Origin: Bifidobacterium sp. ESL0769
Lineage (GTDB): Bacteria; Actinomycetota; Actinomycetes; Actinomycetales; Bifidobacteriaceae
Assembly: GCF_029395495.1 (NCBI RefSeq)
Contig: NZ_CP113918.1
Location: 1,736,001-1,800,000 of the forward strand
Length of the DNA stretch: 64,000 nucleotides
Direction: 5' to 3'
Shown here: positions 16,422 to 32,751 of the stretch, one piece after another
Position numbering within the stretch: the first letter of the stretch is position 1
Layout: every line of letters starts with the position of its first letter
Made by a program: the position numbers and the translations under genes
The notes under the pieces: generated by a model
What the model was told of the DNA's origin: nothing
Databases searched by the model: none
What the model saw: only the letters and a program-made list of their open reading frames with translations

Positions 16422-18650
16422 CTAGTTTTTAAATTGCAGCCCGCTTTCGACGTGAGCGAAGTCCGGAACTTTGTTCCACTTGACGGCGTAGCCGGCGCCG
16501 TGAGCACAGAAAACGGAATCAGGAGTGTTCTCGAGGTCGGTTTCAGGGTCGTAGGCGGTTTGCTTGATGATTTCGTCGGCGTAGTGGCAAGGCTTATAGC
16601 CAGCAAAAACACAGGTCAGTGAGCCGCGACCGTGGGTATAGGCATTGACATCCATCGAATAGTCGCGCATTTCGGAGACCGGCGCACTGCCCTCCAACTC
16701 GGCGTAGTCACCGTCGGATTTTGGAGCGTCGAACGTGCCGCTCATCCGTTGGATATCGGCCATCGCGCGGCCCAACATGTCCTGCGGGACTTCCAAGCGG
16801 AAGCTGTACCACGGCTCCAAAAGCCGACACTCACCTTTTGCCTTGAGTTCCATCAGACCTTGCCGTACCGCACGATACGTGGCCTCGCGAAAATCGCCGC
16901 CTTCCGTATGCTTTTCGTGGCCGCGGCCGGCGACAAGGGAAATCTTCATATCTGTTATCGGCGAACCCAGGAGCACACCAAGATGTTCCTTCTCGCGCAG
17001 ATGGGTCAGAATCGCGCGTTGCCAATTGCGGTCGAGATCGTCGAGGCTGCAACGCGACTCGAAACGCATGCCACTGCCCGGCTCGCCCGGTTCCATCAGC
17101 AGATGAACTTCCGCATAGTGACGCAACGGCTCGAAATGGCCGATACCTTCGATCGGGGCCGTAATGGTCTCGCGGTAAAGAATGCCGCCAGGGCCAAAAT
17201 GAACGTCGATGCCGAAGCGGTCGTGCATCATCTGCGTGATGATTTCGACCTGCACCGCACCCATCAGCTGCACATGGATTTCACCGAGCCTCGCTACCCA
17301 GCGCACGTGCAACGCCGGGTCTTCGTCCTCGAGCGTTCGCAGCGCCACCAGAATCTTGTGCAATTCCGGCGTGACTTCGGCAGACTTGGCCTGTTGCTCG
17401 CCTGTCGACGAATCACTCTCCTGCGTTTCATCAACATTATGTTGTTGATTGTCACCAGTATTAGCTTTACCGGGCAATACGGTATAAGTGAGCACTGGTT
17501 GCAATACAGATTCGCCTGCATCGGGCTCAACTCCCAAGCCTTCACCCGGGAAGGTTTGCGTCAATCCAGTCACCGCACAGACGGAACCGGCCCCAACCTC
17601 GTCGGCCAACTCGAACTTTGCCCCGGAATACCGCCGAATCTGGTCGACTTTTTCCTGCCAGATTGCAGTATCGGATTCAGCCAAGTCATTGCTGTCTTCC
17701 GAGCTGTCACCTTCGGATTTAGGGGTATGGCCACCGCTTCGATCGACACTTTCGGATTTTTGGGAATTACTATCACGCTCGTTCGTAAGCGTTGCTTTGA
17801 CTTTAAGCGAGCCGCCAGTAACTTTGAGCCAAGTGAGACGATTGCCCTGCTCGTCGTGCGAAATCTTGTAGACGCGAGCGCCGAGATCGCTGGGATAATC
17901 CTTCTGTTTCGTAAACCGTTCCAGCCCGGCAAGGAATTCATCAATGCCTTCAAGCTTCAGCGCCGAACCAGAGTAGCAAGGAAACATCTCACGCGCGGTG
18001 ACCATCGAACGCAAGGTGTCATCAGAAATCCTGCCTGAGTCCAAAAGCTCGTCCATCGCGATGCCGCGATCATCGAGCAACGCGACTTCTTCCTGCTCGC
18101 CCGGCTCAGTGTCCCCTTCAAAATCAACACAACCTTCAGAAAACCTCTGTTGCATCTGCCTAATAAGCCCAGCCTTGTCAGCTCCGACCGCGTCCATTTT
18201 ATTAATGAAGACAAACGTCGGCACGTTGTAGCGGGCGAGCAGCCGCCAGAGCGTTTCGGTGTAACCCTGCAGCCCACCGTTGGCATCCACCACGAGAATT
18301 GCGTAATCTAGTACCCGCAGCGTCCGCTCCATCTCCGCCGAAAAATCGACGTGGCCAGGGGTGTCAAGCAACGTGAACTCGAAATCGCCTTGACTCGCAC
18401 TGGTTTTTGAACTCTTGCTTTCTTTTGCAGAAGTACCGCCTACATTGTCTCCGCGAACATCAAGAATCGCTTGCTTCGAGAAAATGGTGATTCCACGCCG
18501 CTTCTCCATGGCATCCGTATCAAGAAACGCATCACCGTGATCCACACGCCCGAGCTTGCGAATCTCGCCGGCGCGATAGAGCATCGCCTCGCACAACGTG
18601 GTCTTCCCCGCATCCACATGCGCCGCAATCCCCACCACCGCTCGTCTCAT
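16422..18650 (-). CDS. TetM-like EF-G-family translation GTPase
   Basis: 742 residues from the ATG at 18650, which follows AGGAG by five bases. The GTPase motifs are present: AHVDAGKTT (G1, about 10-18), RRGIT (G2), DTPGHVDFSAEM (G3) and INKMDA (G4). EF-G-like domains II-V follow, including VHFGPGGILYRETI. The G-domain order and lack of an EF-G G' domain match ribosomal protection proteins (TetM/TetW/TetO) and their chromosomal relatives. It differs from acquired Tet proteins by three polar Ser/Asp/Gln-rich insertions (about 66-88, 284-324, 396-426) and a diverged C-terminus. It is therefore more likely a resident ribosome-acting GTPase; a tetracycline phenotype should not be assumed. Confidence 0.8.
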   Translation of the reverse strand: MRRAVVGIAAHVDAGKTTLCEAMLYRAGEIRKLGRVDHGDAFLDTDAMEKRRGITIFSKQAILDVRGDNVGGTSAKESKSSKTSASQGDFEFTLLDTPGHVDFSAEMERTLRVLDYAILVVDANGGLQGYTETLWRLLARYNVPTFVFINKMDAVGADKAGLIRQMQQRFSEGCVDFEGDTEPGEQEEVALLDDRGIAMDELLDSGRISDDTLRSMVTAREMFPCYSGSALKLEGIDEFLAGLERFTKQKDYPSDLGARVYKISHDEQGNRLTWLKVTGGSLKVKATLTNERDSNSQKSESVDRSGGHTPKSEGDSSEDSNDLAESDTAIWQEKVDQIRRYSGAKFELADEVGAGSVCAVTGLTQTFPGEGLGVEPDAGESVLQPVLTYTVLPGKANTGDNQQHNVDETQESDSSTGEQQAKSAEVTPELHKILVALRTLEDEDPALHVRWVARLGEIHVQLMGAVQVEIITQMMHDRFGIDVHFGPGGILYRETITAPIEGIGHFEPLRHYAEVHLLMEPGEPGSGMRFESRCSLDDLDRNWQRAILTHLREKEHLGVLLGSPITDMKISLVAGRGHEKHTEGGDFREATYRAVRQGLMELKAKGECRLLEPWYSFRLEVPQDMLGRAMADIQRMSGTFDAPKSDGDYAELEGSAPVSEMRDYSMDVNAYTHGRGSLTCVFAGYKPCHYADEIIKQTAYDPETDLENTPDSVFCAHGAGYAVKWNKVPDFAHVESGLQFKN

Positions 18651-19345
18651 TGCCACTCCTCAAAAACGTATCGGTCATCCATTCCCAATTAATCATAAAA
18701 CAAGCCTTACATGCACAATCAAATCCCGTTTATACGAAAATGGCAGTCCTCGAAAACCAACGAGTATTACAAGCAAACAAAGTTATTCGTTAATCAAGGA
18801 AAACCAACGGGCGGAGGCAAAACGGGCATGGTGAAGGGAGCCAAAAGAATTTGGGAAGAAAGAACAAGCGACGCCGCTTCACCACACAACCTGCGGATTT
18901 CCAGTCCTCCAGTAAAACCGGACACCCGTTACAAACAGCGAAAGATAAGAGACAAGGCCTTCATCGAATCACTGATTACAGTGTACACGCTTTTATCGTC
19001 TTTTGCGACACTTCAACAAAGTTTCGTCTCGAAATATGAAAATTTATTATATCGTAATGAGAAATATTATTTTAAGTTATGTCTCTAAAGATAGACCGGA
19101 CAATCGAGAATTTGGCAGCCCTCGCGCGAATTCATCGGGCAGCAAAACTTCGCGGGCTCAAAGGCTTCGGCAGATATGACGGCGGCCGTAATCCTCCGCT
19201 TTAAGACAATCGCGTCCCCACCTTCAACTCGCTTTCAAACTTTTACCATCATCACATCATTTCCCATAATTTTATAAACGCATTACATCGCGGTATTCCC
19301 GCAACCACACGCAAGAGAGATGCTATCGTAAACACAAGAAGGTAA
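18651..19345. other. 695-base intergenic region, AT-rich in part
   Basis: Lies between the start of the TetM-like gene (leftward) and the 1240-residue protein gene (rightward), so it holds both promoters. The stretch 19030-19090 is very AT-rich. A 125-codon open frame at 18711-19088 has no family similarity, an odd composition and no ribosome binding site, and I do not call it. Two short GC-rich blocks (19110-19200) look like gene-like sequence but hold no frame. I see no RNA gene or terminator. Confidence 0.5.
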
Positions 19346-22300
19346 ATGCCCAAATTCCCCGCAACAGCTACACCGAAGAAGCCCATGACCACCACAAACC
19401 CCAGTAATCCGACTGCCGACAACGACGATGGCAGCGTCAAAAACAGCGACGCCGGCAGCAACGTAAATGACACAAACCACGAGAACCCCGAAACCCACGA
19501 AAACGAACTCGACGCGAGAATGGACAGACTTTTCGAACTGCTCAAGCCCTTCATGGACCATTACAGCTGGCGCACGCTGATGGACGAATACGGCGGAGAC
19601 ACCGTCTTCGACACGGAAGACAAACGGATGGAGGCAGACCTGGCCTTCCGCGTCACGAAAATAGATCCCGAACCCGACATGCCGCAAGCGAAGCGCATCA
19701 TCTGCATTTCGCCCGAACCCGCATTGAAAATGATCTGCATCGTCCCCAAGCTCAACGGCTTCCGGATCCACACCCTCGTCACCAAGGCAACCAAAAAGCA
19801 GAAACCCCGAGAATCCAAGGTAACCCCTTCTGCTGATTTAGATTCTCCTTGCGTATTCAAGCACGAATATCGGCACTACGACATCAAAGGCGAAGCGGGA
19901 ATGGTCGTTCTTTATCTGGCGCTGAATTTCCGACCATTCCTTACGCACCACGCCCTCTCCCCCAACGACGTTACGTTCGCCAGCCTTCACGACGATGGCT
20001 TCACCGTCTATTTCAAAGACGGCCAGGGCATCGCGTCAATCAAGCTCAACCAATCGGAAAGTATTTATTATTATCTACGTTTCTTCTCCGACCCACGTAC
20101 GGCCCAGACGTCGCTGGATGAGGCGCGAAAGCTCGACGAAATTGACGTCAACCCGAAACAGATGCTCGCATACTCACCCGGGCGCTCGGATAGGGATTCC
20201 TTCTCATTTTGCCCACCGAACCGTGGGCAGATATACATGTACGGACGCATTCACGAAGATCCATGGAAACACATCAAAGAGGGATTTACCTACGAAATCG
20301 ACTATGTAAACGAGGACGGGACCTCCGAATACATCAGCAGTCCGGAACCCTACAAATGGAGCGTCTGGCAGAAAGACGACATCCCTGCAAGGACCACGTA
20401 CACCGATGCAGTCAGGGCATTCACGACTCTTTCCATGCTGATGCGATCCGTCTACGAGCTTGCCGACCAACTGGGAATCAAGCACGACGCGAACCTCGAG
20501 GACGTCGTGGTGAGATATGCCAGAAGCTGTTCGCATGGGATGGACCACATGTGGAACGTCATCGACCATGCCGTGACCCGCCGGCGTGACATGGCAACCC
20601 TTTCGGCGCTTCTCGACGAGCGAGGCTTTGAACAGACCGAGCTTCCGCTGGGCTACGCACCGGCCGATCGTGCCGATTACCCTCATTGGCCCGACCAAAT
20701 CAAAAGCTGCGGGGGTATTCTGATCACCGCGAAAGACAAGACGTATCCGTTCCATTTTTATCTTGAGCAGGTGTCCGACGATGCCACCGATATCTACCAT
20801 TGCCATCTGTTGCGTAACGAAGGAAATGTCGATCTCGGCAGTGTCAATGTGCATGGGATCGAGGCGGCCAGACTGTATCTGGCCACTTACCTTGGCCGCG
20901 CGAACCCCGGAAAACCGACGGACGACCCATACGGAGAACCTGACCACAAAACGCTCACGCACAAGATCGAGCTCTATTGCAAACGCAACGAAGGCAACTA
21001 CAATGACCTCGCCAACGCTCCGGAATTCCTCACGTCGTTGGTGAAACCCCAGTATTACTCGTTGGGTAAGGACGTGGATGGCAAGGTCTGCCTCACTTAC
21101 AGACAGAGCGCAAAATATAGCGATTACCACCTGCACTTCGCCTGCACCGAGGGAGAATGCTACAACAACCAAGACTACCCGCTTGGATGGGACCCGGACA
21201 ACTCTTCAAAAGAGCACTATCTCCTTGCATTCACCTTGTGGGCGTGGCGTCTGCAAAATCTCTATGAACTGGCGGCACGAATCGGCATCGACATCCGGAA
21301 ATTCAGCTGCGCGGACGTTCATGAAATATTGGCCAATCCAGGCATTGCCGACCTTGGCAAGGATTCCGGCAATGATGAGTTAGGCAATGAATCCGAAGAT
21401 GACAAATCCTACGACAAAGACGACTGTGACAAATCTGATACCGACAAAGCCGAAAACAGCGAATCCGATAATATCAAACCCGATGCGAATGTCATTGCCG
21501 ATGCTTTCAACGGCACTAGGGTTGACGTCGAAGCCGTCCAAAACGTCAGTAACCTTGATGAAGAAATCAACGAAAACGTTGACAAAACCAGCAGCAAGAC
21601 CCAGCATGACATGGATTGGCTTTTTGACAACCTCCGATATCTGCTTGCCGGAAGCGGTTGGTGGTTCATTCCCGATTCCATCGTCCCGGGCACGCCTGCA
21701 AACGACAAAACGGAAACCGTAAAGAAGAATAGTGTCCCGACCGGAGATCCCGTCAGCGATGCAATCACGGAATTGACACAGGAAACGGCCGGAATCCAGC
21801 GCATCCTTTGTTTTTCTCCGGGCCGTAAACCGTTCATCATCACCATCGCTGCGCCCAGAACCGGCAACGGACACGTCACATTGTCGTATTCGCTGCCGTG
21901 CAAGCGGGTGACATGGTCGTTCGAAGAACCTTCCGATCAAAGAGCCGAGGCCATCCTGCGCTTCAGCTCCATCGACAAGGCGCTGCTCTTCATTCTCGTC
22001 GAACTCGACCCGCTGATATTCGTCAACGGTTTGGATAGCAAGACCATTTCGGCTGTTGTCAAAGACCAGGAAGGGTACCAAATCATATTATGCGACGGAA
22101 GCTGGTTCGACCCCATGCCGGTTCAAAAGCCGGAAAGCCTTTACCTATACCTGCTACTCGCCTCGGATCCTTCCACTGCCGACAGTGCTCGGCAGGCAGC
22201 GCTACACATCGACGACTTCCCCTCGAACCCGCAAGCGGCCATCGATTTTCTGCAATACAATGTCAGCCCTCGATACTTCTCATTGAACGACCCCAAGCCC

Positions 22301-23068
22301 GGGGCGGTTTCGCTGGTTGAGAGACATACGGCCACTCCCGCAACCATGGCAAGCGACACGGACCATTCCGCAGTCACTTGCGTATCTGGAACCACGTCCA
22401 GTGACACAGGAGATGCCAGCAACTCTGATAACGCAACAGATGCCGGCCAAAGCGACACAGCAATCTACGACCTCGTCTACTGTCCGCTTCATTCGCAAGC
22501 CCGCAACGAAGATCCCGGGTATCTAACGCTGCTCAAAGGCACCAACCGGCCCAAAGCCATATGCAGAATGGCATTGTTCGCATACAGACTGCAGCAAGTG
22601 CACCGGGCCGCAGAAGCACTTGACATCGCATGCGACTCAGATGACACGTTCATCGACGAACAAGACCGCCAAATCGTTAGCAAGGCCAACGATGTCATCA
22701 ATCTCATCAGTCGTTGGATGAAAATCGAGGAGCAACGCGGAGAACCGCTCGCCCGGCTCAACGGGGTGCATGGGAAGCACAAGTGGACGACGTACCTTGA
22801 ATACGCTAACGGTGTCCACGGCGACACCGAGTTCTCTTATATGAACACAGACGGCTTGATAGATCCCCGCTGTTTGGACATCTCCTATTCCAAAGAGTGG
22901 CCGTCGGCCCGTTACGGTTTCGCCTTTTTCGCCGATCCGGACGACCCCGAAGGCATCCTCTGCAGGATCCGTAGGCAAGAAACCGATAGAGGATTCTCAG
23001 GGACCGAGAAGGACGTGCATACCGTGGATGAGGTGGCTGCCTATCTTGAGGAGAAAATAGAACGCTGA
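19346..23068 (+). CDS. Large repeat-built protein of unknown function
   Basis: 1240 residues, no family recognised, no signal peptide or membrane helix, so probably cytoplasmic. A Thr/Asn/Asp-rich tail (1-50) leads into unit A (about 56-380: MDRLFELLKPF, KRIICISPEP, SIYYYLRFFSDPRTAQTSLD, SVYELADQLGIK), unit B (about 384-530: DHMWNVID ... IEAARLYLATYLG) and unit C (about 535-650: KPQYYSLGKDVDG ... WRLQNLYELAARIGID). An Asp/Lys/Ser/Glu-rich linker (about 672-748) follows. A second, diverged copy of A starts at about 754 (MDWLFDNLRYLL, QRILCFSPGRKP, SLYLYLLLASDPSTADSARQ, SPRYFSLNDPKPG, YRLQQVHRAAEALDIA). A second B (about 1108-1240) ends the protein at DEVAAYLEEKIER. The start at 19346 follows AAGAAGG closely; an ATG at 19385 is possible. 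It is a single gene closed by a strong hairpin. Confidence 0.85.
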   Translation: MPKFPATATPKKPMTTTNPSNPTADNDDGSVKNSDAGSNVNDTNHENPETHENELDARMDRLFELLKPFMDHYSWRTLMDEYGGDTVFDTEDKRMEADLAFRVTKIDPEPDMPQAKRIICISPEPALKMICIVPKLNGFRIHTLVTKATKKQKPRESKVTPSADLDSPCVFKHEYRHYDIKGEAGMVVLYLALNFRPFLTHHALSPNDVTFASLHDDGFTVYFKDGQGIASIKLNQSESIYYYLRFFSDPRTAQTSLDEARKLDEIDVNPKQMLAYSPGRSDRDSFSFCPPNRGQIYMYGRIHEDPWKHIKEGFTYEIDYVNEDGTSEYISSPEPYKWSVWQKDDIPARTTYTDAVRAFTTLSMLMRSVYELADQLGIKHDANLEDVVVRYARSCSHGMDHMWNVIDHAVTRRRDMATLSALLDERGFEQTELPLGYAPADRADYPHWPDQIKSCGGILITAKDKTYPFHFYLEQVSDDATDIYHCHLLRNEGNVDLGSVNVHGIEAARLYLATYLGRANPGKPTDDPYGEPDHKTLTHKIELYCKRNEGNYNDLANAPEFLTSLVKPQYYSLGKDVDGKVCLTYRQSAKYSDYHLHFACTEGECYNNQDYPLGWDPDNSSKEHYLLAFTLWAWRLQNLYELAARIGIDIRKFSCADVHEILANPGIADLGKDSGNDELGNESEDDKSYDKDDCDKSDTDKAENSESDNIKPDANVIADAFNGTRVDVEAVQNVSNLDEEINENVDKTSSKTQHDMDWLFDNLRYLLAGSGWWFIPDSIVPGTPANDKTETVKKNSVPTGDPVSDAITELTQETAGIQRILCFSPGRKPFIITIAAPRTGNGHVTLSYSLPCKRVTWSFEEPSDQRAEAILRFSSIDKALLFILVELDPLIFVNGLDSKTISAVVKDQEGYQIILCDGSWFDPMPVQKPESLYLYLLLASDPSTADSARQAALHIDDFPSNPQAAIDFLQYNVSPRYFSLNDPKPGAVSLVERHTATPATMASDTDHSAVTCVSGTTSSDTGDASNSDNATDAGQSDTAIYDLVYCPLHSQARNEDPGYLTLLKGTNRPKAICRMALFAYRLQQVHRAAEALDIACDSDDTFIDEQDRQIVSKANDVINLISRWMKIEEQRGEPLARLNGVHGKHKWTTYLEYANGVHGDTEFSYMNTDGLIDPRCLDISYSKEWPSARYGFAFFADPDDPEGILCRIRRQETDRGFSGTEKDVHTVDEVAAYLEEKIER

Positions 23069-23106: not shown

Positions 23107-23142
23107 AAAGCGGTGCATAAAGCTGAATTTATGCACCGCTTT
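23107..23142. terminator. Bidirectional hairpin between convergent genes
   Basis: A perfect 15-bp stem (AAAGCGGTGCATAAA, 23107-23121, with 23128-23142) and a 6-base loop, flanked by A- and T-rich ends. It serves the 1240-residue gene on the plus strand and the haem operon on the minus strand. Confidence 0.9.
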
Positions 23143-23155: not shown

Positions 23156-24067
23156 TCAAACCCCGAGCACCGCATCCTCAAGCGCGGCGATGAGCAACGG
23201 ATCCGTGTTCGGCAACGGGAGGCGAATGAGCTTGGCACCCAAGCCCTCGACGGTCTTTTTGAAGCCGACATCCACACCGAAGAGCACCTCGAGATTGTCG
23301 GCGATGAAGCTCAGCGAGCCCGAAACGATGGTCTTGATGCCTTGGTTTTCGACCAGGTCCTTGGCCACGTCATTGATATCGGGCAGGACCCATTCCTCCG
23401 GTGTGCTGCCGCCGTTCTGCCAGGCGATGACATACTTGCTTTCGTCAAGCCCGGCGGCCTTCGCCACCGCTTTGGCGACTTCGACGGCCTGCTCGGTATA
23501 TGGGTCACCGCTTTTGACCACGCGCGTCTGCAGGCTATGCGAACTCAGGATGACTTTCGTGTCCGGGCGGTCGATGACCTCCTGCTCATCCTTGAGCCTG
23601 TCGGCCCAATATTCGATGAGATTACGGTCAAGCCACCAGCCGCGAACCGCACGGTAGGAGACTTGCGGATACTGCGCAAGCCGGGTTTCGGCGCGGTTGT
23701 GGTAGTCACCGCTGGCATAAGAACGCTCCGGAAACAGCGGCAGACCGACGATCTGTGTATAGCCGTCGGCCACAATCTGGTCGATGGTCCCGAAAATCGT
23801 GGGTTCTGCATATTTGAAAGCAAGATAGACCTTATATTCGCCGGGATGGTCCTGGTCAAGCTTTTGCTGCAAATCCTCGGCCTGCTCGCCGGTGATGCGG
23901 CCGAGCGGCGAAGTGCCGCCGATGATCTCGTAATGCTTCTTTACCGACTGGTACATTTCCTCGCTGGGTTTGCCGCCGTGGATGCCGGTATAGAAATCGC
24001 GAACTTCCTCAATGGTATCGGGAGCGCCGAGACCCATGAGCAACACTGCTGTTTTCTGTTCTGCCAT
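23156..24067 (-). CDS. Ferrochelatase paralogue 1, diverged
   Basis: 303 residues from the ATG at 24067 (AAGG nine bases upstream). It has the ferrochelatase fold signature across its length: GGTSPLGRIT, VYLAFKYAEPTI, SSHSLQTR with the catalytic His177, AWQNGG and SFIADNLEVL with Glu260. It departs from the canonical enzyme at several points: GLGAP instead of AYGTP (Leu13 where the axial Tyr sits), LFPERS instead of LAPQYS, and GVDVGFK where the downstream acidic metal-site residues normally lie. It is the last gene of a five-gene minus-strand operon. It may be a chelatase for another metal or porphyrin, or a partner of the canonical copy. Confidence 0.88.
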   Translation of the reverse strand: MAEQKTAVLLMGLGAPDTIEEVRDFYTGIHGGKPSEEMYQSVKKHYEIIGGTSPLGRITGEQAEDLQQKLDQDHPGEYKVYLAFKYAEPTIFGTIDQIVADGYTQIVGLPLFPERSYASGDYHNRAETRLAQYPQVSYRAVRGWWLDRNLIEYWADRLKDEQEVIDRPDTKVILSSHSLQTRVVKSGDPYTEQAVEVAKAVAKAAGLDESKYVIAWQNGGSTPEEWVLPDINDVAKDLVENQGIKTIVSGSLSFIADNLEVLFGVDVGFKKTVEGLGAKLIRLPLPNTDPLLIAALEDAVLGV

Positions 24068-24129
24068 GATTGTCAACCTTTTGTTGGGTTCAACGTTTAT
24101 TACTACAAATTATTAAATTACGATAGTTG

Positions 24130-25095
24130 TTATCGAGCGCAAGGTGCGGCAACCTTCGCCCCAGCTCGAATCTCGCCTTCATATACCAAGTCTTCCAACG
24201 CCTCAACCAGCAACGGATCGTCGTTCGGCATGCGCAGCCTAATCAGCGTGCCGCCGAGCTTTTCGACGTTGGCCTTGAGCTCGATATCGATGTCGTAGAG
24301 CACCTCGACGTTGTCGGCAATGAAACTCAGCGGGGCCACGACGAACGTGTCCGCCTCGCCTTTGCTCATAAAATCACGCACAGCGACTTCAATGTCCGGC
24401 GCCAGCCATTTGTCGGCCGAAGGACCGCCGCACTGCCAAGCCACCGACCACTTTCCGTCTTCAAGTCCGGCACGTTCGGCAACCGCCTTGGCGTTGTTGA
24501 CCGCCTCGTCGCGATAGGGGTCGCCACCTTCGATGACGGTGTTCTTGACGCTGTGCGAAACAAGCAAAACTCTGGTATTCGGCTTGGCGACGGTTTCACG
24601 AACTTCCGCAAGCCTGTCGGCCCAGAAGCGAACCAGATGCTCGTCGGACCACCAGCCGCGCACTGCAGTGTAGACCATATGCGGATGCTTGGCGAATTGG
24701 GCCTCGGCACGGCGATGGTAGCCCTCGTTAGTCGAAGTGGAATATTGCGGCGCGAGCGCAATGCCACGCACATCGGTAATCCCGTCGGCGGCGATCTGGT
24801 CAGCCACGTCCTCGATGAAGGGCTTGATATATTTGAAGCCGGTGTAGACCTTGTAGCGGCCCGGAAAATCGCGATCAAGCCTGCACTGCAACGCTTCGGC
24901 CTGATCGTCGGTGACGTGGGCCAACGGCGAGATGCCGCCCATGTTTAGCGCGTCATAATGCGATTTCACACCTTCGTATACCTGCTCGCTCGGCTTGTGC
25001 CCGCCGAACATGCAAGTGCAGAAGTCCATGATGTCGCTGGATTGATATGGCGTGCCGAAACCCATCAGCAGCACCGCCGTGACTTGTTGGCCCAT
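24130..25095 (-). CDS. Ferrochelatase paralogue 2, Cys-rich and diverged
   Basis: 321 residues, ATG at 25095 with AAAGGA upstream. Ferrochelatase motifs: GFGTPYQSSD near the N-terminus (Phe13 replaces the axial Tyr), GGISPLAHVT, ALAPQYSTST, VSHSVKN with His181, AWQCGG and SFIADNVEVLYDIDIELK with Glu264, which keeps the acidic metal site. Several cysteines are unique to this copy (FCTCMF near 25-29, Cys71, Cys222, and one three residues from the C-terminus); actinobacterial CpfC proteins often carry a [2Fe-2S] cluster, but this set does not match a pattern I can name. It lies 43 bases after paralogue 3 and 62 before paralogue 1. Confidence 0.9.
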   Translation of the reverse strand: MGQQVTAVLLMGFGTPYQSSDIMDFCTCMFGGHKPSEQVYEGVKSHYDALNMGGISPLAHVTDDQAEALQCRLDRDFPGRYKVYTGFKYIKPFIEDVADQIAADGITDVRGIALAPQYSTSTNEGYHRRAEAQFAKHPHMVYTAVRGWWSDEHLVRFWADRLAEVRETVAKPNTRVLLVSHSVKNTVIEGGDPYRDEAVNNAKAVAERAGLEDGKWSVAWQCGGPSADKWLAPDIEVAVRDFMSKGEADTFVVAPLSFIADNVEVLYDIDIELKANVEKLGGTLIRLRMPNDDPLLVEALEDLVYEGEIRAGAKVAAPCAR

Positions 25096-25138
25096 CGTTG
25101 TTCCTTTGTGTTGGTTTGCTTATCTGACTATGCTGCCG

Positions 25139-26086
25139 TCATTCGGCGCTCAAAACAGCGTCTTCGAGCGCGGCTTCAAGCAGTGGATCGGCGTTCGGCA
25201 TCTGCAGGCGACGAAGCTTGCCGCCCACGGATTCGATTTCGCCTTTGAGCTCGATGTCGACGTCGTCGAGAATCTCGAGATTGTCGACAATGAAGCCGAG
25301 AGAACCCGAGACGATGGTCGAAATCCCACCGTTTTGAATGAGATCCTTTGCAGTTTCCTTGAAGTCGGGCCCGATCCACGGCTCACCGGTGCGCCCGGCG
25401 CTCTGCCAGGCGATGGTGTATTGGTCGCTACGTAAGCCGGCGGCCTTGGCCACGGTCTTGGCGTTGTTGGTCACCTCGTCAAGGTACGGGTCGCCGCCGT
25501 TGATGATGCGCATCGGCAGGCTGTGGGCACTGAAAATGACCTTGGTGTCAGCACGGTCGGTGAGGTCTTTCATCGCAATCAGCTGGTCGGCCCAGAACTT
25601 GATGAGGTTCTCATCCTTCCACCAGCTGCGGATGGGATGATAGGCGATTTCAGGATGCTTTTTCAGGGCTTCCTGTGCGCGCTCGTGATAGTTTTCCACA
25701 GAATAGACCGAATATTGTGGGGCCAGCGGAAGACCGTAGATATCGGTGATGCCGGCGTCAGCGAATTCGTCGATAGTCTGGGCGATATAGGGCTCGATGT
25801 ATTTGAAGCCCTTGCGCACCACATATTCGCCCAGATGGTCGTGGTCGAGCGCGGCCTGCAGGCCGGCGACCTGGTCGTCGGTGATCTCGGCGAGCGGAGA
25901 GGTGCCGCCGATGGCCTCGTAACGGCCGGCCAGTTCGTCATACAACTTCTGCGGCGGCTTCACGCCATGCCGGATGTTGGTGTAATAGCCCATCAGGTCC
26001 TCGGTTTTGTACGGAGTGCCGTAGGCCATCAGGAGCACCGCCTTCTTCGGGGCGGAGGTTGCGTTGTCGGAATTTTCACTTGTCAT
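25139..26086 (-). CDS. cpfC: Coproporphyrin ferrochelatase, canonical copy
   Basis: 315 residues. Inserts Fe2+ into coproporphyrin III in the coproporphyrin-dependent haem pathway. It aligns well with the Bacillus subtilis enzyme: AYGTPYKTEDLMGYYTNIRHG with Tyr22 at the axial-ligand position, GGTSPLAEITDDQ, LAPQYSVYS, SAHSLP with catalytic His188, AWQSAGRTGEPWIGPDF and GFIVDNLEIL with Glu271. Because of ChdC upstream, the product should be coproheme. The start overlaps the end of the MFS gene by 11 bases and has AAAGGA upstream, so it is translationally coupled. Of the three paralogues this is the only one with all expected residues. Confidence 0.94.
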   Translation of the reverse strand: MTSENSDNATSAPKKAVLLMAYGTPYKTEDLMGYYTNIRHGVKPPQKLYDELAGRYEAIGGTSPLAEITDDQVAGLQAALDHDHLGEYVVRKGFKYIEPYIAQTIDEFADAGITDIYGLPLAPQYSVYSVENYHERAQEALKKHPEIAYHPIRSWWKDENLIKFWADQLIAMKDLTDRADTKVIFSAHSLPMRIINGGDPYLDEVTNNAKTVAKAAGLRSDQYTIAWQSAGRTGEPWIGPDFKETAKDLIQNGGISTIVSGSLGFIVDNLEILDDVDIELKGEIESVGGKLRRLQMPNADPLLEAALEDAVLSAE

Positions 26087-27524
26087 TATCGATGTTTCCT
26101 TTGTTGAAGGGGATGAATAGGGTCAGCACGATGCACACCACCGCGATGAGCAGCGCGACGAGGAACATGGCGCGGAACGAAGTCAGCGTCGGATTGCCGT
26201 GTACACTGCCGATGAGCTGGGCGGAGGCGAAGATGAGCGGGGCGATGGTCATGCCGATCTTCTTGCACGCCGAGACGCCGCCGATGGCCTGCATACGCTG
26301 GTCCGGCGCGGCCAAGCGTCCGGCGATGACCTGCAGCGGCGAGGACATGAACGCGCCTAGGCCGAAGCCGAACAGGGTCGAAAGCACGAAGAACGCCGGA
26401 AGGCTGTGTGCCGTCAGAAGGATGCCGATGACGGAAATGCCGTTGATGGCACTCGAGACGATCAAGGCCTTCTTGTTTCCGAGTTTGTCGACGAAAATGC
26501 CACCGACGTACGAACCGATCAAACTGCCCAAACCAGTGCCCATCATGGTCATGCCGGAAAGCGCCTTGGAAAGGTGAAATACCACAAAGACATAGGTGGG
26601 AATGTAGACGAACAGAGAGAAGAGGCTGCCGCCGACCATCGCAAGTACCAGCGTCAGGACGTAGGAACGGTTGTGGAACAGGCTGATCGGCAGGAACGGC
26701 ATCGTGGATTTGTCAAGCTTCTTTTCGGAGTAGAGGAACAGCAGGAACGCGACCACAGCGATGACGAAGAGCACGAGAACCATGATCCAGTACTGCTTGA
26801 AATGCTGGCATAAGGTGATGCCGAGCATCAGCGTCAAAAGAGCCACGGAGAAGGAGCACAGGCCGGCCAGATCGGTTTTGGTGCTCGTAGCCGCAAGCTG
26901 GTTGTCCATGACGAACCACGCCATCACGAAGAGGATGAGCAGGACAGGAAGCATGCCGTAATAGAACACGCGCCAGTTCTTAGCCATGCCGATGGCCATA
27001 CCTGCAAGCGCCGGACCCGCGACGGCGGAAAGTCCGGCGACCACGCCGACGAAGGAGACCCTGCGGCCCTGATGATTCTTGCGGGCGGCCTGCATAAGCT
27101 CGTTCATCGCAAGCACCATGATGCCGCTGTCGCCGATGGCCTGGATAAAACGGCCGGCGAGCATCAGCGGATACATCGGGGCGATGGCGGTGATCAGGCA
27201 GCCGACGAACCAAAAGCCAAGCTCCCAGAGGAAGACCTTCTTGGTGCCGCGGGTGTCGGAAAGGTTCGCCATGATCGGCGTGCCGACCACGAGGCCCAGC
27301 GTGTAGATGCCGGCGACCCACGAGGAGCTCAGCGTCGTAAGGCCGAAGGTCTTGACGATTGAGGAAAGCAGGGTGCCCGCCGAACCGCTGTCAAGCTGGG
27401 TGACGAAGACGACCAGTGCGTAGAACCAGATCGGCGGTTTGCGCACGGCACGGCCGACGGTTTTCGCGGCGTCGGCGGCTTTAGTAGCGGCTTCGGTCGC
27501 AGTTTTGGATACAGCGTCACTCAT
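26076..27524 (-). CDS. MFS transporter in the haem operon, DHA2-like
   Basis: 482 residues from the ATG at 27524, with GGAGG ten bases upstream. About 14 membrane helices in the DHA2/drug-exporter style; motif A-like region NLSDTRGTKK after helix 2 and SYVGGIFVDKLGNKK after a later helix. The N-terminal tail is Ala/Lys/Thr-rich. It overlaps chdC by eight bases (ATGAGTGA) and the canonical ferrochelatase by eleven. That context makes porphyrin or haem the natural candidate substrate: uptake of coproporphyrin made by other bacteria, or export of surplus porphyrin or haem. Sequence alone does not tell the direction. Confidence 0.85.
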   Translation of the reverse strand: MSDAVSKTATEAATKAADAAKTVGRAVRKPPIWFYALVVFVTQLDSGSAGTLLSSIVKTFGLTTLSSSWVAGIYTLGLVVGTPIMANLSDTRGTKKVFLWELGFWFVGCLITAIAPMYPLMLAGRFIQAIGDSGIMVLAMNELMQAARKNHQGRRVSFVGVVAGLSAVAGPALAGMAIGMAKNWRVFYYGMLPVLLILFVMAWFVMDNQLAATSTKTDLAGLCSFSVALLTLMLGITLCQHFKQYWIMVLVLFVIAVVAFLLFLYSEKKLDKSTMPFLPISLFHNRSYVLTLVLAMVGGSLFSLFVYIPTYVFVVFHLSKALSGMTMMGTGLGSLIGSYVGGIFVDKLGNKKALIVSSAINGISVIGILLTAHSLPAFFVLSTLFGFGLGAFMSSPLQVIAGRLAAPDQRMQAIGGVSACKKIGMTIAPLIFASAQLIGSVHGNPTLTSFRAMFLVALLIAVVCIVLTLFIPFNKGNIDNDK

Positions 27525-28431
27525 GATGATGGGCCTCCGGATTTGATGCGGATGCGGCTGATTGTTCCGACGCGGTTGGATGTTGCGGCATAGCTGGTTG
27601 GGAAGGAACCGGCTTATCGGCTCCGGCGGGAATGATCTCGCCTTCCAGCGTGTGGCGGGCACCTGGCTTCGGGCGGCTCACTTCCCAGCCATCGAGGAAG
27701 AAATGGTCCAGGTCTTCAACGGGAAGATACGTACCTGATACGAAATAAGGGAAATCACCATAAATGGAGCTCGCTTCGGCGTAACGCATCGCTTCGATGA
27801 TCTTTTTGAAGACCAACGGATCGTCGGCCAGGAGCAGGACTCCCCACTCGTGATCGTCAAGGCCCATCGCGCCGGTGATGAACGGCAGCACACGGCCGCC
27901 GAACGAACGGCCGATTTTGCCATGGTCCTTCATATAGGCCTGGCGCTGCTCGAAGGGAAGCGTATACCAGTTGGCACCCGGGTTGCGGGTTTTGGACATC
28001 GGATAGAAGCAGACATATGGCTTCTTCGGCAGCTTCGGCTTGACCGCGCGGTTGACATAGGCCCAGCCGCGATCGCTTTTCGGCTTGCCGGAATAGGTTC
28101 CCGCCTCGCCGACCGAAACGAACGAACCGGCCCTGGTGAGGTACGCTGACAACGGCAGCTTCGCCAAGCGGTTCTCGATTTCGTTAAGCTCGTCCAGTGT
28201 CTCGCGATACAGAATCAGACCGAGGTCGCCTTTGGTGCCGCTGACGTCGAAGAGGTACCAGCTGCCTTTGCCGGCTTCCTCGTTGGCTTCGAATTCAGCA
28301 AGCATCTGCTTGAACTGGCTGACCTCGTTACGTTGCGCCTCAGGGTTCTGCTTTTGGAACGACGGCCAATCCATCTTCCACCACAGGTCCAGGCAGTACC
28401 AGCCATCCAATGTTGCTACTGGTTCTTGCAT
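27517..28431 (-). CDS. chdC: Coproheme decarboxylase (HemQ)
   Basis: 304 residues from the ATG at 28431, preceded by AAGGAGAG. It converts coproheme to haem b with H2O2 by two oxidative decarboxylations. Motifs: DLGLILYRETLDELNEIEN, YPMSKTRNPGANWYTLPFEQ with the catalytic-type Tyr143, RQAYMKDHGKIGRSF with the proximal haem ligand His170, and FITGAMGLDDHEWGV. The motif spelling follows the Firmicutes-type ChdC rather than the shorter actinobacterial type as I remember it. Residues about 255-304 are an extra Pro/Ala/Ser-rich tail ending HHHE. First gene of the operon. Confidence 0.93.
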   Translation of the reverse strand: MQEPVATLDGWYCLDLWWKMDWPSFQKQNPEAQRNEVSQFKQMLAEFEANEEAGKGSWYLFDVSGTKGDLGLILYRETLDELNEIENRLAKLPLSAYLTRAGSFVSVGEAGTYSGKPKSDRGWAYVNRAVKPKLPKKPYVCFYPMSKTRNPGANWYTLPFEQRQAYMKDHGKIGRSFGGRVLPFITGAMGLDDHEWGVLLLADDPLVFKKIIEAMRYAEASSIYGDFPYFVSGTYLPVEDLDHFFLDGWEVSRPKPGARHTLEGEIIPAGADKPVPSQPAMPQHPTASEQSAASASNPEAHHHE

Positions 28432-28966
28432 ATCCTCATCTCTCCTTTTGCTTGTATGCGGATATGCCCCGCCGGCTCGCGGCACGGCGCTGTTGCACGT
28501 CATTGTCGACAAGACCGGCCAGATACATCCGACAGGTTACGTCAAACCTTCCATGTCGTTCCGGCAATCACATCAACGTCACTGCTTTATCACCAATGCG
28601 ATTATCGATACCTACGCGAGAAACCCAAGCGATTACAGCAAAAATGGCTGTTTTCTGCTAGATATCTTCAAATAATTATCAACGCAGGACGATTAACAAA
28701 AACCTGTTATAATAACTATTAGAAGGTTTGACTTCTCAAGTCACAAGAATTATGGTACACGTTCCTAACAGCTTTTGAGACGTTTCGTTAATATTTAGTC
28801 TCAAAACAAGTTATTCCGCGGATTTCCCGGCGTGTCGCACTATAACGAGCGACATCGCGTCGCAATCGAGGAGTTACAAAATAAAACCGCAAGCACTAAT
28901 GAAAAAGGCCATGACCATCCTTGCTTGGACGGTCACAGCCTTGAATTTTCGAAGAGTATTTCGGCG
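28432..28966. other. Intergenic region between the haem operon and copA
   Basis: About 535 bases. It contains the promoter of the minus-strand haem operon near 28440-28700 and the copA terminator at its right end. The middle (28600-28800) is AT-rich. Open frames through it on the plus strand are composition artefacts with no ribosome binding site. No operator stands out. Confidence 0.5.
28905..28942 (-). terminator. Rho-independent terminator of copA
   Basis: On the minus strand AAGGCTGTGACCGTCC pairs, with two mismatches, to GGATGGTCATGGCCTT across a 6-base loop, and is followed by a TTT run. It lies 25 bases after the copA stop. Confidence 0.85.
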
Positions 28967-29140
28967 TCACGCCGCGTACTTGGCGGGGTCGGCGGCGAAG
29001 GACTTGGCACAGTTGTCGCTGCAGAAGTAGTAGGTCTTGCCGTTATAGTCTTGGCTGCCGGCGGCGGTCTTCGGGTCGATCATCATGCCGCAGACCGGGT
29101 CCTTGACGGTGCTGGCGCTGCCGTTCATGTTCATATCCAT
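28967..29140 (-). CDS. Possible internal start giving a free 57-residue YHS protein
   Basis: Within copA, GAAGGA lies 7 bases before an in-frame ATG at 29140. From there translation would give [20 protein letters not shown] and the whole YHS domain (Cys17, Cys40 and Cys44 as possible ligands) to the shared stop. The site is as good as that of most genes here and lies exactly at the domain boundary, so a stand-alone copper chaperone-like product is possible. It could equally be the scar of a former separate yhs gene fused to copA by loss of a stop. Needs protein evidence; the confidence is for production of the short form. Confidence 0.35.
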
Positions 29141-31627
29141 AGTGGTTCCTTCTTTCGCTTTCGCGGGTTGGTTGTTGTTGTGCGGCGCATCTTCAGACGC
29201 GTCAACAGGTTTTTGCTCGGGTTTCTTTTCCGGGACTTCAGTATCTTTTGAAGCACCCTTGAGCTCGACGTGACGTTCACGCAGTTTGAAGGTGAAGTGG
29301 CGCGGCTTGACGGTGGCCGGATTGAAGGAGCGCAGACGGTTCGCGTTCAAGACCACGGAAAGCGAAGAGAACGCCATCGCGGCGCCAGCGATCATCGGGT
29401 TCAACATGATATGCCAAATCGGGTAGAGGATGCCGGCGGCGATCGGAATACCGATGCCGTTGTAGCCGAAGGCGAAGCCGAGGTTCTGCTTGATGTTGCG
29501 CATGGCGGCTCGCGACAGGTCGATGGCCGTAACCAAGCCGGTGAGGCTACCCGAGACCAGCGTAATGTCGGAGGACTCGATAGCCACGTCGGTGCCGGTG
29601 CCGATAGCAAAGCCAACATCTGCAGCCGCGAGCGCCGGAGCGTCATTGATGCCGTCGCCGACCATCCCGACCATGTGGCCCTCGTTCTGCAACCGCACGA
29701 TTTCTTCGGCCTTTCGTTCCGGACGAACGCCCGCGATGACGCGATCCACGCCCACCTCGTTGGCCATGGCAGTGGCGGTCGTCTTGTTGTCGCCAGTGAG
29801 CATGACCACCTGCAGGCCGCGTTCGCGCAGTGCTGCGATGGCCTTGGCCGAGTCCGGCTTGACGGTATCCGCTACAGCCAACACGGCGACCAACTTGCCA
29901 TCGACGGCTGCCAGAATCGGCGTTTTGCCTTTTTGAGCGTAATCGGCAAACAACTTTTCGATATGGCTGAATTGCGAATGGACCTCATGCCCGGAGCTGG
30001 CTTCATCCGAATCAGACGCTTCCGTCTTTTTACCGTTTACGGCTACAGAAAAACTTTCGTTGCCACCATTTGCAGGCGACGACATAGAAGTGCTAATATT
30101 GCGACTTTTCATCAAATCAGCATTGCCGACGATGACATCGTGACCGCAGACTTTCGCCACTACCCCACTGCCGGGCACGGCTTCGAATGAATCCGCCTCG
30201 GGCACAGACAGCTTGCGCTGCTCGGTACCTTTGACGATGGCCTGTGCGAGTGGATGCTCGGAAACCTGTTCGGCCCCGGCGATGAAGGAGAGCAGATCAT
30301 CGCGGCGCGACTGCATATAGCTTGCGTCGCGCTCGGTCGACTTATCGCGCCCATTCATCTCGTCACCTTCAGCGCCATCGTCATACCCATCGAACTTGTC
30401 ATTTCCAGCTTCGCTCGCAGCATCATCCACCCAACCGATATCGGTGAGCTCGGGCTTGCCACGAGTGATGGTACCGGTTTTGTCGAGCACGACGGTATCG
30501 ACGTCACGCGCGGTCTGCAACGCCTCCGCGGAACGAATGAGCACGCCGTATCGCGCGGCTTTGCCGGTAGAAATCGTCACGGAAAGCGGGGTGGCGATGC
30601 CCAAAGCACAAGGGCAGGCAATGACCAGCACGGCCACAGCCGACACAAGGCCATACAAACCTTGCGGTGCGGGACCAAACACCCACCAGATAACGAACGT
30701 CCAGATGGCGATAAGAATGACGCCTGGCACGAAGTAACCGGAAATCTTATCAGCAAGTTTTTGAATCGGTGCCTTAGAGGTCTGGGCGGTACGCACGAGC
30801 TTGATGATTTGCGCGAGCACGGTGTCACGTCCGACTTTGGTGGCACGATATCGCAAGGTTCCGTTGCCGTTGATGGTCGCGCCGGTTACGTTGTCGCCTT
30901 CGCCTTTGGCAACCGGGATGGATTCGCCAGTGATCATCGATTCGTCGATGGACGTCTGGCCAGAAATCACCTTGCCGTCGACCGGCAGCTGCTCCCCAGG
31001 CTTGATGACAACGATATCGCCGACCTCAACCTGGTCGGCATTGATGTCGAGCTCCTTACCATTGCGCACAACATGGGCAGATTTCGGCGTCAAATTAATC
31101 AGCGCACGAATGGATTCACCGGTACCCAACCGTGCGTGGGCCTCGAGCAGCTGACCCAGCAACATCAAGGTAATAATCGTGCCGACAGATTCGTAATACG
31201 GGTCGCGAGCGCTCGACGGCAGAATACCGGGCATCACGGTGACCACAACGCTATACGTATAGGACGCGGCGGTTCCCAGCGCTACCAACGAGTTCATTTC
31301 GGGGGCACGGTGTGCGAGCGCCAGCCAGCCGGTGCGGTGAATCGGCCATCCGGAATAAAACATGACCGGCGTGATGAACACGAACTCGACCCACGGATTG
31401 GTGAAGAAATCAATGACGCCCATCGGCACGAACGCCTTGAGCCACATATGAAACATGGCGAAAACGAACACCGGAATCGTCAGCACCGCGGCGACAATAA
31501 GCCGGCGGTCGAGCGCCTTGATCTCGGCTTTGCGCACCGCATCCGGATCATCTTCCTGGCCTTGCGCCTGGCTTGCGACAGGTTGCCTCGCCGCCTGCTT
31601 GCTGACTTGACTCATTGACTGCCCCAT
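28967..31627 (-). CDS. copA: Copper-exporting P1B-type ATPase with C-terminal YHS domain
   Basis: 886 residues; pumps Cu+ out of the cell. There is no N-terminal HMA domain. Motifs: TGESIPV (actuator loop), CPCALG in the sixth helix (near 339, the Cu+ site), DKTGT (near 380, phosphorylation), SEHPLAQAI (HP nucleotide motif), [11 protein letters not shown] polar, charged insertion ([14 protein letters not shown] and nearby, about 405-440) lies in the P/N region. A YHS domain closes the protein ([26 protein letters not shown]), probably a metal-binding part. The domain is normally separate or N-terminal. The gene follows the cupredoxin gene by 90 bases, under the CsoR operator. An in-frame ATG at 31615 is an alternative start. 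Confidence 0.95.
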
Positions 31628-31717
31628 TTCACATCCACGTTATCTTTTATCGCTATTGCTCATTCGTTTGCATTTACCGTTATCGCTGTCAATTACGTAA
31701 TTTGACCAGCTGCAAAA

Positions 31718-32167
31718 TCAGCCTTTGCTTTTTGCGCCTTTCGGCAACACGTGCACCATGCCGTGCAGCATGTTCATACCGCAGGCGTAGGGCAAATCGC
31801 CGGGCTTGGTGGGAGTGAATTCGACGTCGGTAGTTTTGAACGGCGGCAACGTCTGATCGATGCCGAGGTCACTGAAAACGACGTGCGACGAGCATTCGCC
31901 ATCCTCCTGCCGATCAAATTGCAAGCGCACTGGAGAGCCGGCCTCCACGTCGATTTCGGCAGGCGTATAGCCGCCTTTGACCACGATATGCGCGGTCTGC
32001 AACGCGCCTTCGCGGCTCGCCTGAGCCGCTTTGCGAGGTGCGAAAAAGTACCAGACAATGACGACGCTCACTACCAGCGCCACCAGAATCACTGCAATGT
32101 TGCCAACCATATCGCCCCACATTCCGCCGCCGGAATCATCTCCGACAACTTCGACGTATTCATTCAC
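31718..32167 (-). CDS. Membrane-anchored cupredoxin-domain copper protein
   Basis: 149 residues. An acidic, Gly-rich N-terminus is followed by one membrane helix (about 22-42) and then a cupredoxin domain: VKGGYTPAEIDVEAGSPVRL, SSHVVF with His95, and YACGMNMLHG with Cys129, Met131/133 and His135 as copper ligands. It matches the small plastocyanin-like proteins found next to CopA in Gram-positive bacteria. The basic residues (APRKAAQASR) follow the helix and the acidic ones precede it, so by the positive-inside rule the copper domain would face the cytoplasm and could hand Cu+ to CopA. The start is a GTG at 32167; no in-frame ATG occurs until residue 16. Confidence 0.88.
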   Translation of the reverse strand: MNEYVEVVGDDSGGGMWGDMVGNIAVILVALVVSVVIVWYFFAPRKAAQASREGALQTAHIVVKGGYTPAEIDVEAGSPVRLQFDRQEDGECSSHVVFSDLGIDQTLPPFKTTDVEFTPTKPGDLPYACGMNMLHGMVHVLPKGAKSKG

Positions 32168-32184
32168 TGTAACTGAAACCTACC

Positions 32185-32201
32185 ATACCCCCCTAGGGTA
32201 T
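32185..32201. promoter_or_regulatory. CsoR-type operator in the divergent copper promoter
   Basis: ATACCCCCCTAGGGTAT (32185-32201) has the G/C-tract dyad with AT flanks seen in CsoR operators. It abuts a TATAAT at 32201-32206 that could be the csoR -10 box, and lies 18 bases before the cupredoxin start. CsoR bound here would block both directions, released by Cu+. Confidence 0.75.
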
Positions 32202-32277
32202 ATAATGTCAATATATTCAGCTCAGCATCGTAATGCATAATACACGAAAAAAATGTGGAAACAGGCGGAAAGGAACA

Positions 32278-32751
32278 ATGATGGAAAGCGCTGTACAGAG
32301 CGAAAACAATCATCCAGACAAAGTGGCAGACAAAGCCAAAAAACACGAATCCGAACCGGCAACTGCCAAAACTACTCCGGCAGACAAACCCGGTGAAACC
32401 TGCTGCGCTCATTGCAATGAGGAATCGTTCGATTGCGCTCAAACTTCCGAAATTTCCGAACAATGCGCCAACGTCGGTTATGTCCACGACAAGAAAAAAT
32501 TGGTCACCCGTCTACGTCGCATCGAAGGCCAGGTGCGGGCGATTACCGCGATGGTCGAAAACGACACCTATTGCATCGATATTTTAACCCAAATTGCCGC
32601 GTCTAACAGCGCCCTGAAATCCGTGGCATTGTTGCTTCTCGACGATCATCTCGAAAGCTGCGTCGCCACGGCTGCAGCCAAGGGTGGACCGGTCGCCGAC
32701 CAGAAGATGGACGAGGCCATCGCCGCCATCACACGGTTAGTGAAGTCATAG
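32278..32751 (+). CDS. csoR: Copper-sensing repressor CsoR with extra Cys-rich N-terminus
   Basis: 157 residues from the ATG at 32278, after AAAGGA. The CsoR/RcnR core lies at about 69-157: KKKLVTRLRRIEGQVRAI, YCIDILTQIAASNSAL with Cys99, and DDHLESC with His124 and Cys128, giving the C-H-C copper fingerprint. An N-terminal extension of about 68 residues is Lys/Glu-rich and then carries five Cys and a His (TCCAHCNEESFDC, EQC), which is unusual and could be a second metal site. Divergent from cupredoxin-copA; predicted to repress both and itself. Confidence 0.93.
   Translation: MMESAVQSENNHPDKVADKAKKHESEPATAKTTPADKPGETCCAHCNEESFDCAQTSEISEQCANVGYVHDKKKLVTRLRRIEGQVRAITAMVENDTYCIDILTQIAASNSALKSVALLLLDDHLESCVATAAAKGGPVADQKMDEAIAAITRLVKS

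What the first reader, a model, noticed from the sequence alone, without database searches (positions are those of the whole stretch)
23156..28431. Haem-finishing operon with three tandem ferrochelatase paralogues in a bifidobacterium
ChdC, an MFS transporter and three ferrochelatases form one overlapping operon. Only the 25139 copy keeps the expected Tyr (22), His (188) and Glu (271). The other two keep the catalytic His and Glu but lose the Tyr (Phe13 and Leu13) and alter the metal-site residues; the 24130 copy gains several Cys. I am not aware of haem synthesis as a normal bifidobacterial trait, and no upstream tetrapyrrole gene (hemA to hemY) is in the window. Hypothesis: the cell imports coproporphyrin made by neighbours and finishes it to haem, with the two diverged chelatases having taken other jobs (other metals, other porphyrins, or a haem-delivery role).
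Basis: partly seen in the sequence, partly recalled or inferred. Interest (0 to 1): 0.82.

Follow-up and report, generated by a model that had tools for sequence, protein, structure and literature searches.

The report
Bifidobacterial haem-finishing operon, three chelatases
A bifidobacterium whose nearest relatives probably live in bees carries an operon that looks able to finish haem from a precursor it cannot make itself, and two of its three iron-inserting enzymes have changed active sites yet are preserved by selection, so they probably do a different job that still has to be tested.

Summary
Minus-strand genes ChdC, an MFS transporter and three ferrochelatase-family proteins (C, B, A) form one cluster, 28431-23156. 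No GlutR, ALAD, UroD or (over cut-off) CgoX was found in the genome, but cydA and a catalase were, so salvage (outside coproporphyrin III to coproheme to haem b) is the best reading of ChdC plus copy C. This part is not new in kind: a 2012 paper predicted the last haem steps in Bifidobacterium asteroides. I find ChdC-MFS-HemH with one chelatase in a second genus of the family, and MFS-hemH (with hemQ in Lactococcus) on lactic-acid-bacterial plasmids; the bifidobacterial copies group with those of lactobacilli.

What looks new is the pair A and B, present in 4 of 112 genus genomes and joined as one clade. They keep the catalytic His and Glu but lost both arginines that hold propionates 6 and 7, and changed other near-invariant pocket residues. 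Their dN/dS (0.04-0.15) says maintained, not decaying. What A and B do (another metal, metal removal, or hand-over) is inference and needs assay.

The parts
27517..28431 (-). ChdC (HemQ), H2O2-dependent coproheme decarboxylase, Firmicute type, 304 aa from ATG 28431
   Evidence: PF06778 167.1 bits; NF008913 254.4 over cut-off 253; Tyr144 and Lys148 of the Geobacillus enzyme kept; start read
26076..27524 (-). MFS transporter, candidate porphyrin transporter, direction unknown; 482 aa from ATG 27524
   Evidence: PF07690; 47% identical to the MFS that overlaps hemH on lactobacillus plasmids, 31% to the one between hemQ and hemH on a Lactococcus plasmid
25139..26086 (-). copy C: coproporphyrin-type ferrochelatase with the known substrate residues
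   Evidence: PF00762 239.3 bits, TIGR00109 207.1 over cut-off 124.6; Tyr13, Thr15, Arg30, Arg46, Tyr47, Ser54, Tyr125, His183, Glu264 (B. subtilis numbering) kept
24130..25095 (-). copy B: diverged paralogue (Phe13, Phe30, His46, Cys26, Cys222 in B. subtilis numbering)
23156..24067 (-). copy A: diverged paralogue (Leu13, Ala15, no Arg30, His46, Asn222, Gly268), 303 aa from ATG 24067
   Evidence: its structure job had not finished
23107..23142 (-). terminator-like hairpin just after copy A, likely end of the transcript
   Evidence: 15-pair stem followed by CTGTATTTTA; consensus match only
28905..28942 (-). terminator-like hairpin after the upstream copper-ATPase gene, before the operon
   Evidence: 16-pair stem with T tail; consensus match only

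Best explanation
This is a haem-finishing (salvage) operon with two extra, repurposed chelatases. Shown by sequence: the genome has genes for the last two steps of the coproporphyrin-dependent pathway and none of the four other steps that I tested. Inferred: coproporphyrin III made by neighbours enters the cell, perhaps through the MFS protein; copy C inserts Fe(II) to give coproheme; ChdC decarboxylates it with H2O2 to haem b; haem b fills cytochrome bd and catalase. B and A most likely descend from one duplicate of C or of a close relative of C, and were then maintained. They keep the catalytic His183/Glu264 pair and most ligands of propionates 2 and 4 (both Tyr47, Ser54, Tyr125; Thr15 in B only), but lost the arginines that hold propionates 6 and 7 and the proximal Tyr13. 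My leading guess is that they act on the same class of porphyrin with another metal preference or a looser grip, for example taking Zn or Cu out of scavenged metallo-coproporphyrin so that C can insert iron. The last example is a guess (about 0.15, see the novel case).
For: Absent: GlutR and ALAD in the own genome; UroD in 0 of 9 genomes; CgoX over cut-off in 0 of 14. Present: cydA, catalase. ChdC and HemH matches fall in the same 9 of 112 genus genomes; all 8 with an intact operon have cydA and catalase. The related MFS lies next to HemH in these 8, in 8 of 8 intact loci among 9 fetched from a second genus and, by adjacent matches, on 11 lactobacillus plasmids. Tree: A+B 100/99; A+B+C 96/85; A with C and B with C rejected, p-AU 0.012 and 0.001. 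dN/dS: A 0.036-0.120, B 0.057-0.146, C 0.028-0.211. Arg30 and Arg46 are in 50 of 50 references; 0 of 222 other listed homologues lack both. The equivalent Listeria residues bind p7 and p6 (PMC7340540 and PMC9794026, passages). B. subtilis Y13M speeds Co insertion and abolishes Cu use (PMC11988928, passage citing earlier work).
Against: No uptake of coproporphyrin is shown, and the MFS scores best with an efflux family (EmrB-like, 125.3 bits, under its cut-off of 230.2). Six of the 14 catalase-positive and 16 of the 25 cydA-positive genus genomes lack the operon, so haem can probably be had another way. On the lactobacillus plasmids ChdC is partial, interrupted or not matched, so MFS-HemH occurs without an intact ChdC beside it. 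In Listeria CpfC the R29L change alone had no significant effect in solution (PMC9794026, passage). Taken singly, Arg46 is replaced in 26 of 114 and Arg30 in 11 of 114 far homologues. With A left out, the placing of B next to C is unresolved. I know of no assay for A or B.
Confidence: 0.6

Rival explanations
1. On A and B only: they are ordinary extra ferrochelatases; three copies simply raise Fe insertion or cover different iron or oxygen conditions, as proposed for paired HemH in Bacillus thuringiensis.
For: Catalytic His and Glu kept in all eight A and B sequences; paired HemH with condition-dependent roles are reported in B. thuringiensis (PMC11988928, abstract and passages) and Shewanella (PMC6664582, search listing).
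Against: A and B lack together two arginines that none of 222 other listed homologues lacks together, and depart from Ser222 (222 of 222) and, for A, Asp268 (222 of 222). Their stems are long (0.60 and 0.70 against 0.19 for C).
Confidence: 0.2
2. On A and B only: they are non-catalytic porphyrin or coproheme carriers that pass substrate to C or product to ChdC, or regulatory partners of C.
For: Most p2 and p4 ligands are kept while p6 and p7 ligands are lost, which could favour release; the genes are co-directional in one unit.
Against: His183 and Glu264 are kept in 8 of 8 A and B sequences, unexpected in a pure carrier. No interaction data.
Confidence: 0.15
3. The operon protects against porphyrins or frees iron from haem: MFS exports porphyrin and A or B run the chelatase backwards, as was speculated for enterococcal HemH and reported for Porphyromonas gingivalis IhtB.
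For: MFS scores best with an efflux family, under its cut-off. The reverse reaction is proposed for HemH where upstream genes are missing (PMC11282960, passage).
Against: ChdC is open and co-directional in 8 of 8 intact genus loci, which is hard to explain unless haem is made; all 8 genomes have cydA and catalase.
Confidence: 0.15
4. A and B are decaying duplicates with no function.
For: They are missing in four close relatives (G082, G084, G088, G090), and ChdC and HemH are broken in G082.
Against: Open without inner stops in 4 of 4 genomes that carry them, dN/dS 0.036-0.146; B is predicted to fold confidently.
Confidence: 0.04

Closest known systems
Coproporphyrin-dependent (CPD) haem pathway, terminal steps CpfC (HemH) and ChdC (HemQ)
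   Same: Copy C and ChdC match the Firmicute-type enzymes and keep their known active-site residues.
   Different: GlutR, ALAD, UroD and CgoX were not found; two more chelatases with altered pockets follow.
Haem genes of Bifidobacterium asteroides PRL2011 (PMC3447821, passages)
   Same: Predicted last haem steps, cydABCD and catalase in a bee bifidobacterium.
   Different: The passages I saw (12 of 24 places) mention no three-copy hemH, no MFS link and no import of coproporphyrin.
hemQ-MFS-hemH of a Lactococcus lactis plasmid (pAH1-1) and MFS-hemH of Lactobacillaceae plasmids
   Same: Same gene order in pAH1-1; related MFS and HemH (about 47% and 61% identity to lactobacillus copies).
   Different: One hemH in each of the four annotated regions I read (the Loigolactobacillus record has a second matching place that I did not look at); ChdC partial, interrupted or not matched on the lactobacillus plasmids.
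Paired ferrochelatases HemH1/HemH2 of Bacillus thuringiensis and Shewanella
   Same: Duplicate ferrochelatases in one genome with divided roles (PMC11988928, abstract and passages; PMC6664582, search listing).
   Different: Those genomes make haem from scratch (recalled); here three genes are adjacent and two lost substrate residues.

Membership tests
Coproporphyrin ferrochelatase (CpfC), copy C | Ferrochelatase family profile | tested here: met
   PF00762 239.3 bits over 27; TIGR00109 207.1 over 124.6
Coproporphyrin ferrochelatase (CpfC), copy C | Distal His/Glu, proximal Tyr and ligands of all four propionates | tested here: met
   His183, Glu264, Tyr13, Thr15, Arg30, Arg46, Tyr47, Ser54, Tyr125 kept; ligands from PMC7340540 and PMC9794026 passages
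Coproporphyrin ferrochelatase (CpfC), copy C | Fe(II) insertion into coproporphyrin III | not testable with these tools
   needs enzyme assay
Coproporphyrin ferrochelatase (CpfC), copies A and B | Ferrochelatase family profile and fold | tested here: met
Coproporphyrin ferrochelatase (CpfC), copies A and B | Arg30 and Arg46, ligands of propionates 7 and 6 | tested here: not met
   Arg absent at both places in 8 of 8, so I do not file A and B as CpfC, only as ferrochelatase-family paralogues
Coproporphyrin ferrochelatase (CpfC), copies A and B | Catalytic His183 and Glu264 | tested here: met
   8 of 8
Coproheme decarboxylase (ChdC/HemQ) | Family profile and catalytic Tyr | tested here: met
   PF06778, NF008913 254.4 over 253, Tyr144 and Lys148 equivalents (their catalytic role is recalled)
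Complete coproporphyrin-dependent haem pathway | GlutR, ALAD, UroD and CgoX present | tested here: not met
   no GlutR, ALAD, UroD; CgoX model 34.1 bits over positions 2-73 against cut-off 97.85. GSAM, HMBS and UroS were not searched; the genome is 96.7% complete
Porphyrin importer (MFS) | Transport of porphyrin into the cell | not testable with these tools
   only gene linkage to HemH is shown

The most novel reading that the evidence does not exclude
A and B are porphyrin metal-exchange enzymes: they strip a wrong metal such as Zn or Cu from metallo-coproporphyrins found in the gut and hand the freed ring to C, so that a bacterium unable to make porphyrins can live on whatever metalloporphyrin its neighbours leave. 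That would be a dedicated demetallation step inside a haem salvage operon.
Probability: 0.15. Interest if true: 0.85.

Novelty: new variant of a known kind. Interest (0 to 1): 0.55.

Why it matters
If C and ChdC work on imported coproporphyrin, these bacteria depend on others for most of haem synthesis, which gives a defined exchanged molecule to test in their host's gut. A and B are natural ferrochelatase variants kept by selection, with changes at residues that structural work ties to propionate binding and metal choice; they could show how a chelatase acquires a new task. The recurring MFS-HemH pair gives a concrete candidate for a porphyrin transporter.

Tried and rejected
Decay of A and B: rejected by dN/dS and open frames. 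A complete haem pathway elsewhere: four marker families failed. Separate origin of A and B: A with C and B with C rejected as clades, though with A left out the position of B is unresolved, so an AB gene from an unsampled donor near lactobacilli is not excluded. Affinity of B to Nitrospira, suggested by the loci (29-34% identity for the full-length matches), was dropped as an effect of which peptide patterns were scanned. Neighbour-gene trees disagree with one another, so I could not tell loss of A and B in G084, G088 and G090 from gain by exchange. Tyr13 loss as the key sign was dropped. The structure of A was requested but not finished. Promoter scan: 3 sites against a mean of 2.5 in shuffles.

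Rows left out: of the 238 proteins, I left out P0001-P0011 and the A or B copies P0022, P0121-P0123 and P0238, which leaves 222. In one search the 50 references are my choice from the 120 listed plus B. subtilis and the C copies. In one search the C copy of G002 was left out. Locus L065 (cydA region of the own genome) was fetched and not read.

Literature: 10 searches. 'Three ferrochelatases' has no occurrence in the 20 listed of 34 papers; I did not see the other 14. No title on a triple hemH in Bifidobacterium showed in the listings; most subscription papers are not held.
Full report
What is there. Five minus-strand genes run from 28431 to 23156: ChdC, an MFS transporter and three ferrochelatase-family genes that I call C (25139-26086), B (24130-25095) and A (23156-24067). 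ChdC and MFS overlap by 8 nt and MFS and C by 11 nt; C-B and B-A are gaps of 43 and 62 nt. Terminator-like hairpins stand after A and between the upstream copper-ATPase gene and the operon. The window is part of a single 2.50-Mb contig, 96.7% complete.

Whole-genome context. The genome has exactly these three PF00762 matches. GlutR, ALAD and UroD (0 of 9 operon-related genomes) are absent. The CgoX model reaches no cut-off in 14 genomes, five of which have neither ChdC nor HemH; its weak hits lie within the first 73 positions. Each of these searches found its family in control genomes (over cut-off in 10, 11, 8 and 4 of 14). GSAM, HMBS, UroS and HemW were not searched. A cytochrome bd gene and a catalase are present, so the cell has uses for haem.

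Distribution. Among 112 genomes of the genus, HemH and ChdC match in the same 9. Eight have the intact ChdC-MFS-HemH set; the ninth, G082, has a stop inside ChdC and a HemH fragment and is the only one of the nine without catalase. All nine have cydA, as do 16 others; catalase is in 14, six of them without the operon. Four genomes have three chelatases: G000, G083, G085 and G091; G084, G088, G090 and G002 have one. By equal contig length G083 is ESL0728, G085 ESL0690, G091 ESL0784, G084 ESL0704, G090 ESL0732 and G002 B. aemilianum. That such ESL strains come from bees is inferred from other ESL numbers in PMC10128065 (passages) and recall; no call names the organism of the window or its source. 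Of the eight relatives' loci fetched, the copper ATPase and cupredoxin genes are upstream in 6 and the EF-G-like gene of 16422-18656 is nearby in 7, so within this clade the operon keeps its place. In the whole family (189 genomes), ChdC also occurs in 14 genomes of a second genus. I fetched nine of these 14: eight carry ChdC-MFS-HemH with one chelatase and one is broken. That genus is probably the B. asteroides group, but no call names it. A sample of 396 genomes of the phylum had 194 with HemH; only G000 had three matches and nine others had two.

Origin. In a 59-row tree the bifidobacterial chelatases sit next to Lactobacillaceae copies inside the Firmicute type (the 93-row tree agrees). 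A and B are one clade (100/99), joined to the C copies of the same clade at 96/85; A+C and B+C are rejected (p-AU 0.012 and 0.001). Support weakens when one is dropped: A alone with C 90/76, B alone unresolved. A search of about 5.8 billion proteins with A gave 10 hits, nine named Bifidobacterium and one without a name (such a search only reaches relatives that share short words).

Mobile relatives. In 72,556 plasmid records, C matches 11 Lactobacillaceae plasmids at 60-61% identity, and the same 11 records hold the related MFS just upstream. In the three regions I read, MFS and hemH overlap by 4 nt. Eleven Lactococcus records match both hemH and hemQ; the one I read, pAH1-1, has hemQ-MFS-hemH in the order seen here. 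On the lactobacillus plasmids ChdC is a partial match (95 residues) in 9, not matched in one (Loigolactobacillus) and, in L. reuteri pLr03, a full-length match whose open frame is only 216 aa with no listed gene (that gene table is incomplete).

The diverged copies (B. subtilis numbering, 50 references that I picked). His183 and Glu264 are kept in 8 of 8 A and B. Arg30 and Arg46 are in 50 of 50 references; B has Phe and His, and A lacks the first Arg (it is one residue shorter there) and has His at the second. Nine residues are shared by A and B and found in no reference, including Phe25, Val43, His46, Ser182 and Ser257. Of 69 conserved columns A departs at 19, B at 19 and both at 10. In 222 other listed homologues none lacks both arginines and Ser222 is invariant, but single losses occur: Arg46 in 26 and Arg30 in 11 of 114 far ones. 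Both copies keep Tyr47, Ser54 and Tyr125; B keeps Thr15 and A has Ala. In Listeria CpfC the matching residues bind propionates 4 and 2, and the lost arginines bind 6 and 7 (PMC7340540, PMC9794026, passages); there R45L weakened the whole hydrogen-bond network, while R29L had no significant effect in solution. Tyr13 varies in nature, but Y13M in B. subtilis changes metal choice (PMC11988928, passage). Because propionates 6 and 7 are also in protoporphyrin IX while 2 and 4 are not (PMC9794026, passage), the pattern does not suggest a switch to protoporphyrin IX; this is inference.

Reading. Haem salvage from outside coproporphyrin III through C and ChdC fits best; transport is inferred only. A and B were repurposed and kept; for what is open. 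I rank altered metal use or metal removal first, then extra dosage, then a carrier role or protection. The rivals on A and B are compatible with salvage by C and ChdC, so the odds do not add up to one.

Known before. Bottacini and others (PMC3447821, passages) predicted enzymes for the last three haem steps and cydABCD in B. asteroides and tried haemin and protoporphyrin. PMC9004370 (passages) suggests that a missing haem-synthase annotation may explain why three other bee strains did not take up oxygen, and that bifidobacterial HemN may be HemW. PMC4449606 (passages) found cydABCD shared among bee bifidobacteria. Coproporphyrins as growth factors for a Leucobacter appear in a title cited by PMC6104308 (passages). 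New here, as far as my searches go: the three-copy operon, the paired loss of arginines under selection and the MFS-HemH link.

Noticed in passing
window 19346-23068 (+): A 1240-aa open frame with no Pfam match; of the eight fetched relatives' loci only that of G085 carries it beside the operon.
   Followed up: partly
window 28967-32751: Copper P-type ATPase with a C-terminal YHS domain, a cupredoxin-like protein and a metal-sensing repressor lie just upstream of the operon; the first two are also upstream in 6 of 8 fetched relatives' loci.
   Followed up: partly
window 35307-39585 (-): ECF-type transporter (fused S and T parts, two ATPases) with a PfkB kinase; an ECF haem transporter is known in group A Streptococcus (a reference title), but the substrate here is unknown.
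   Followed up: no
L064 (G082): Broken operon: stop inside ChdC and HemH reduced to about 69 codons, with catalase missing but cydA kept.
   Followed up: partly
L099 (G537, second genus): Another broken operon: ChdC and HemH in pieces and no MFS match.
   Followed up: no
G086:C1:869517-870655: Catalase match split over two frames in a genome without the operon, possibly a recent break.
   Followed up: no
L101 (Enterococcus faecalis plasmid): hemH and hemQ matches on two E. faecalis plasmids at nearly the same identities as on Lactococcus plasmids, suggesting exchange of the module.
   Followed up: no
window 46391-47665 (-): Glutamate-cysteine ligase family 2 protein.
   Followed up: no
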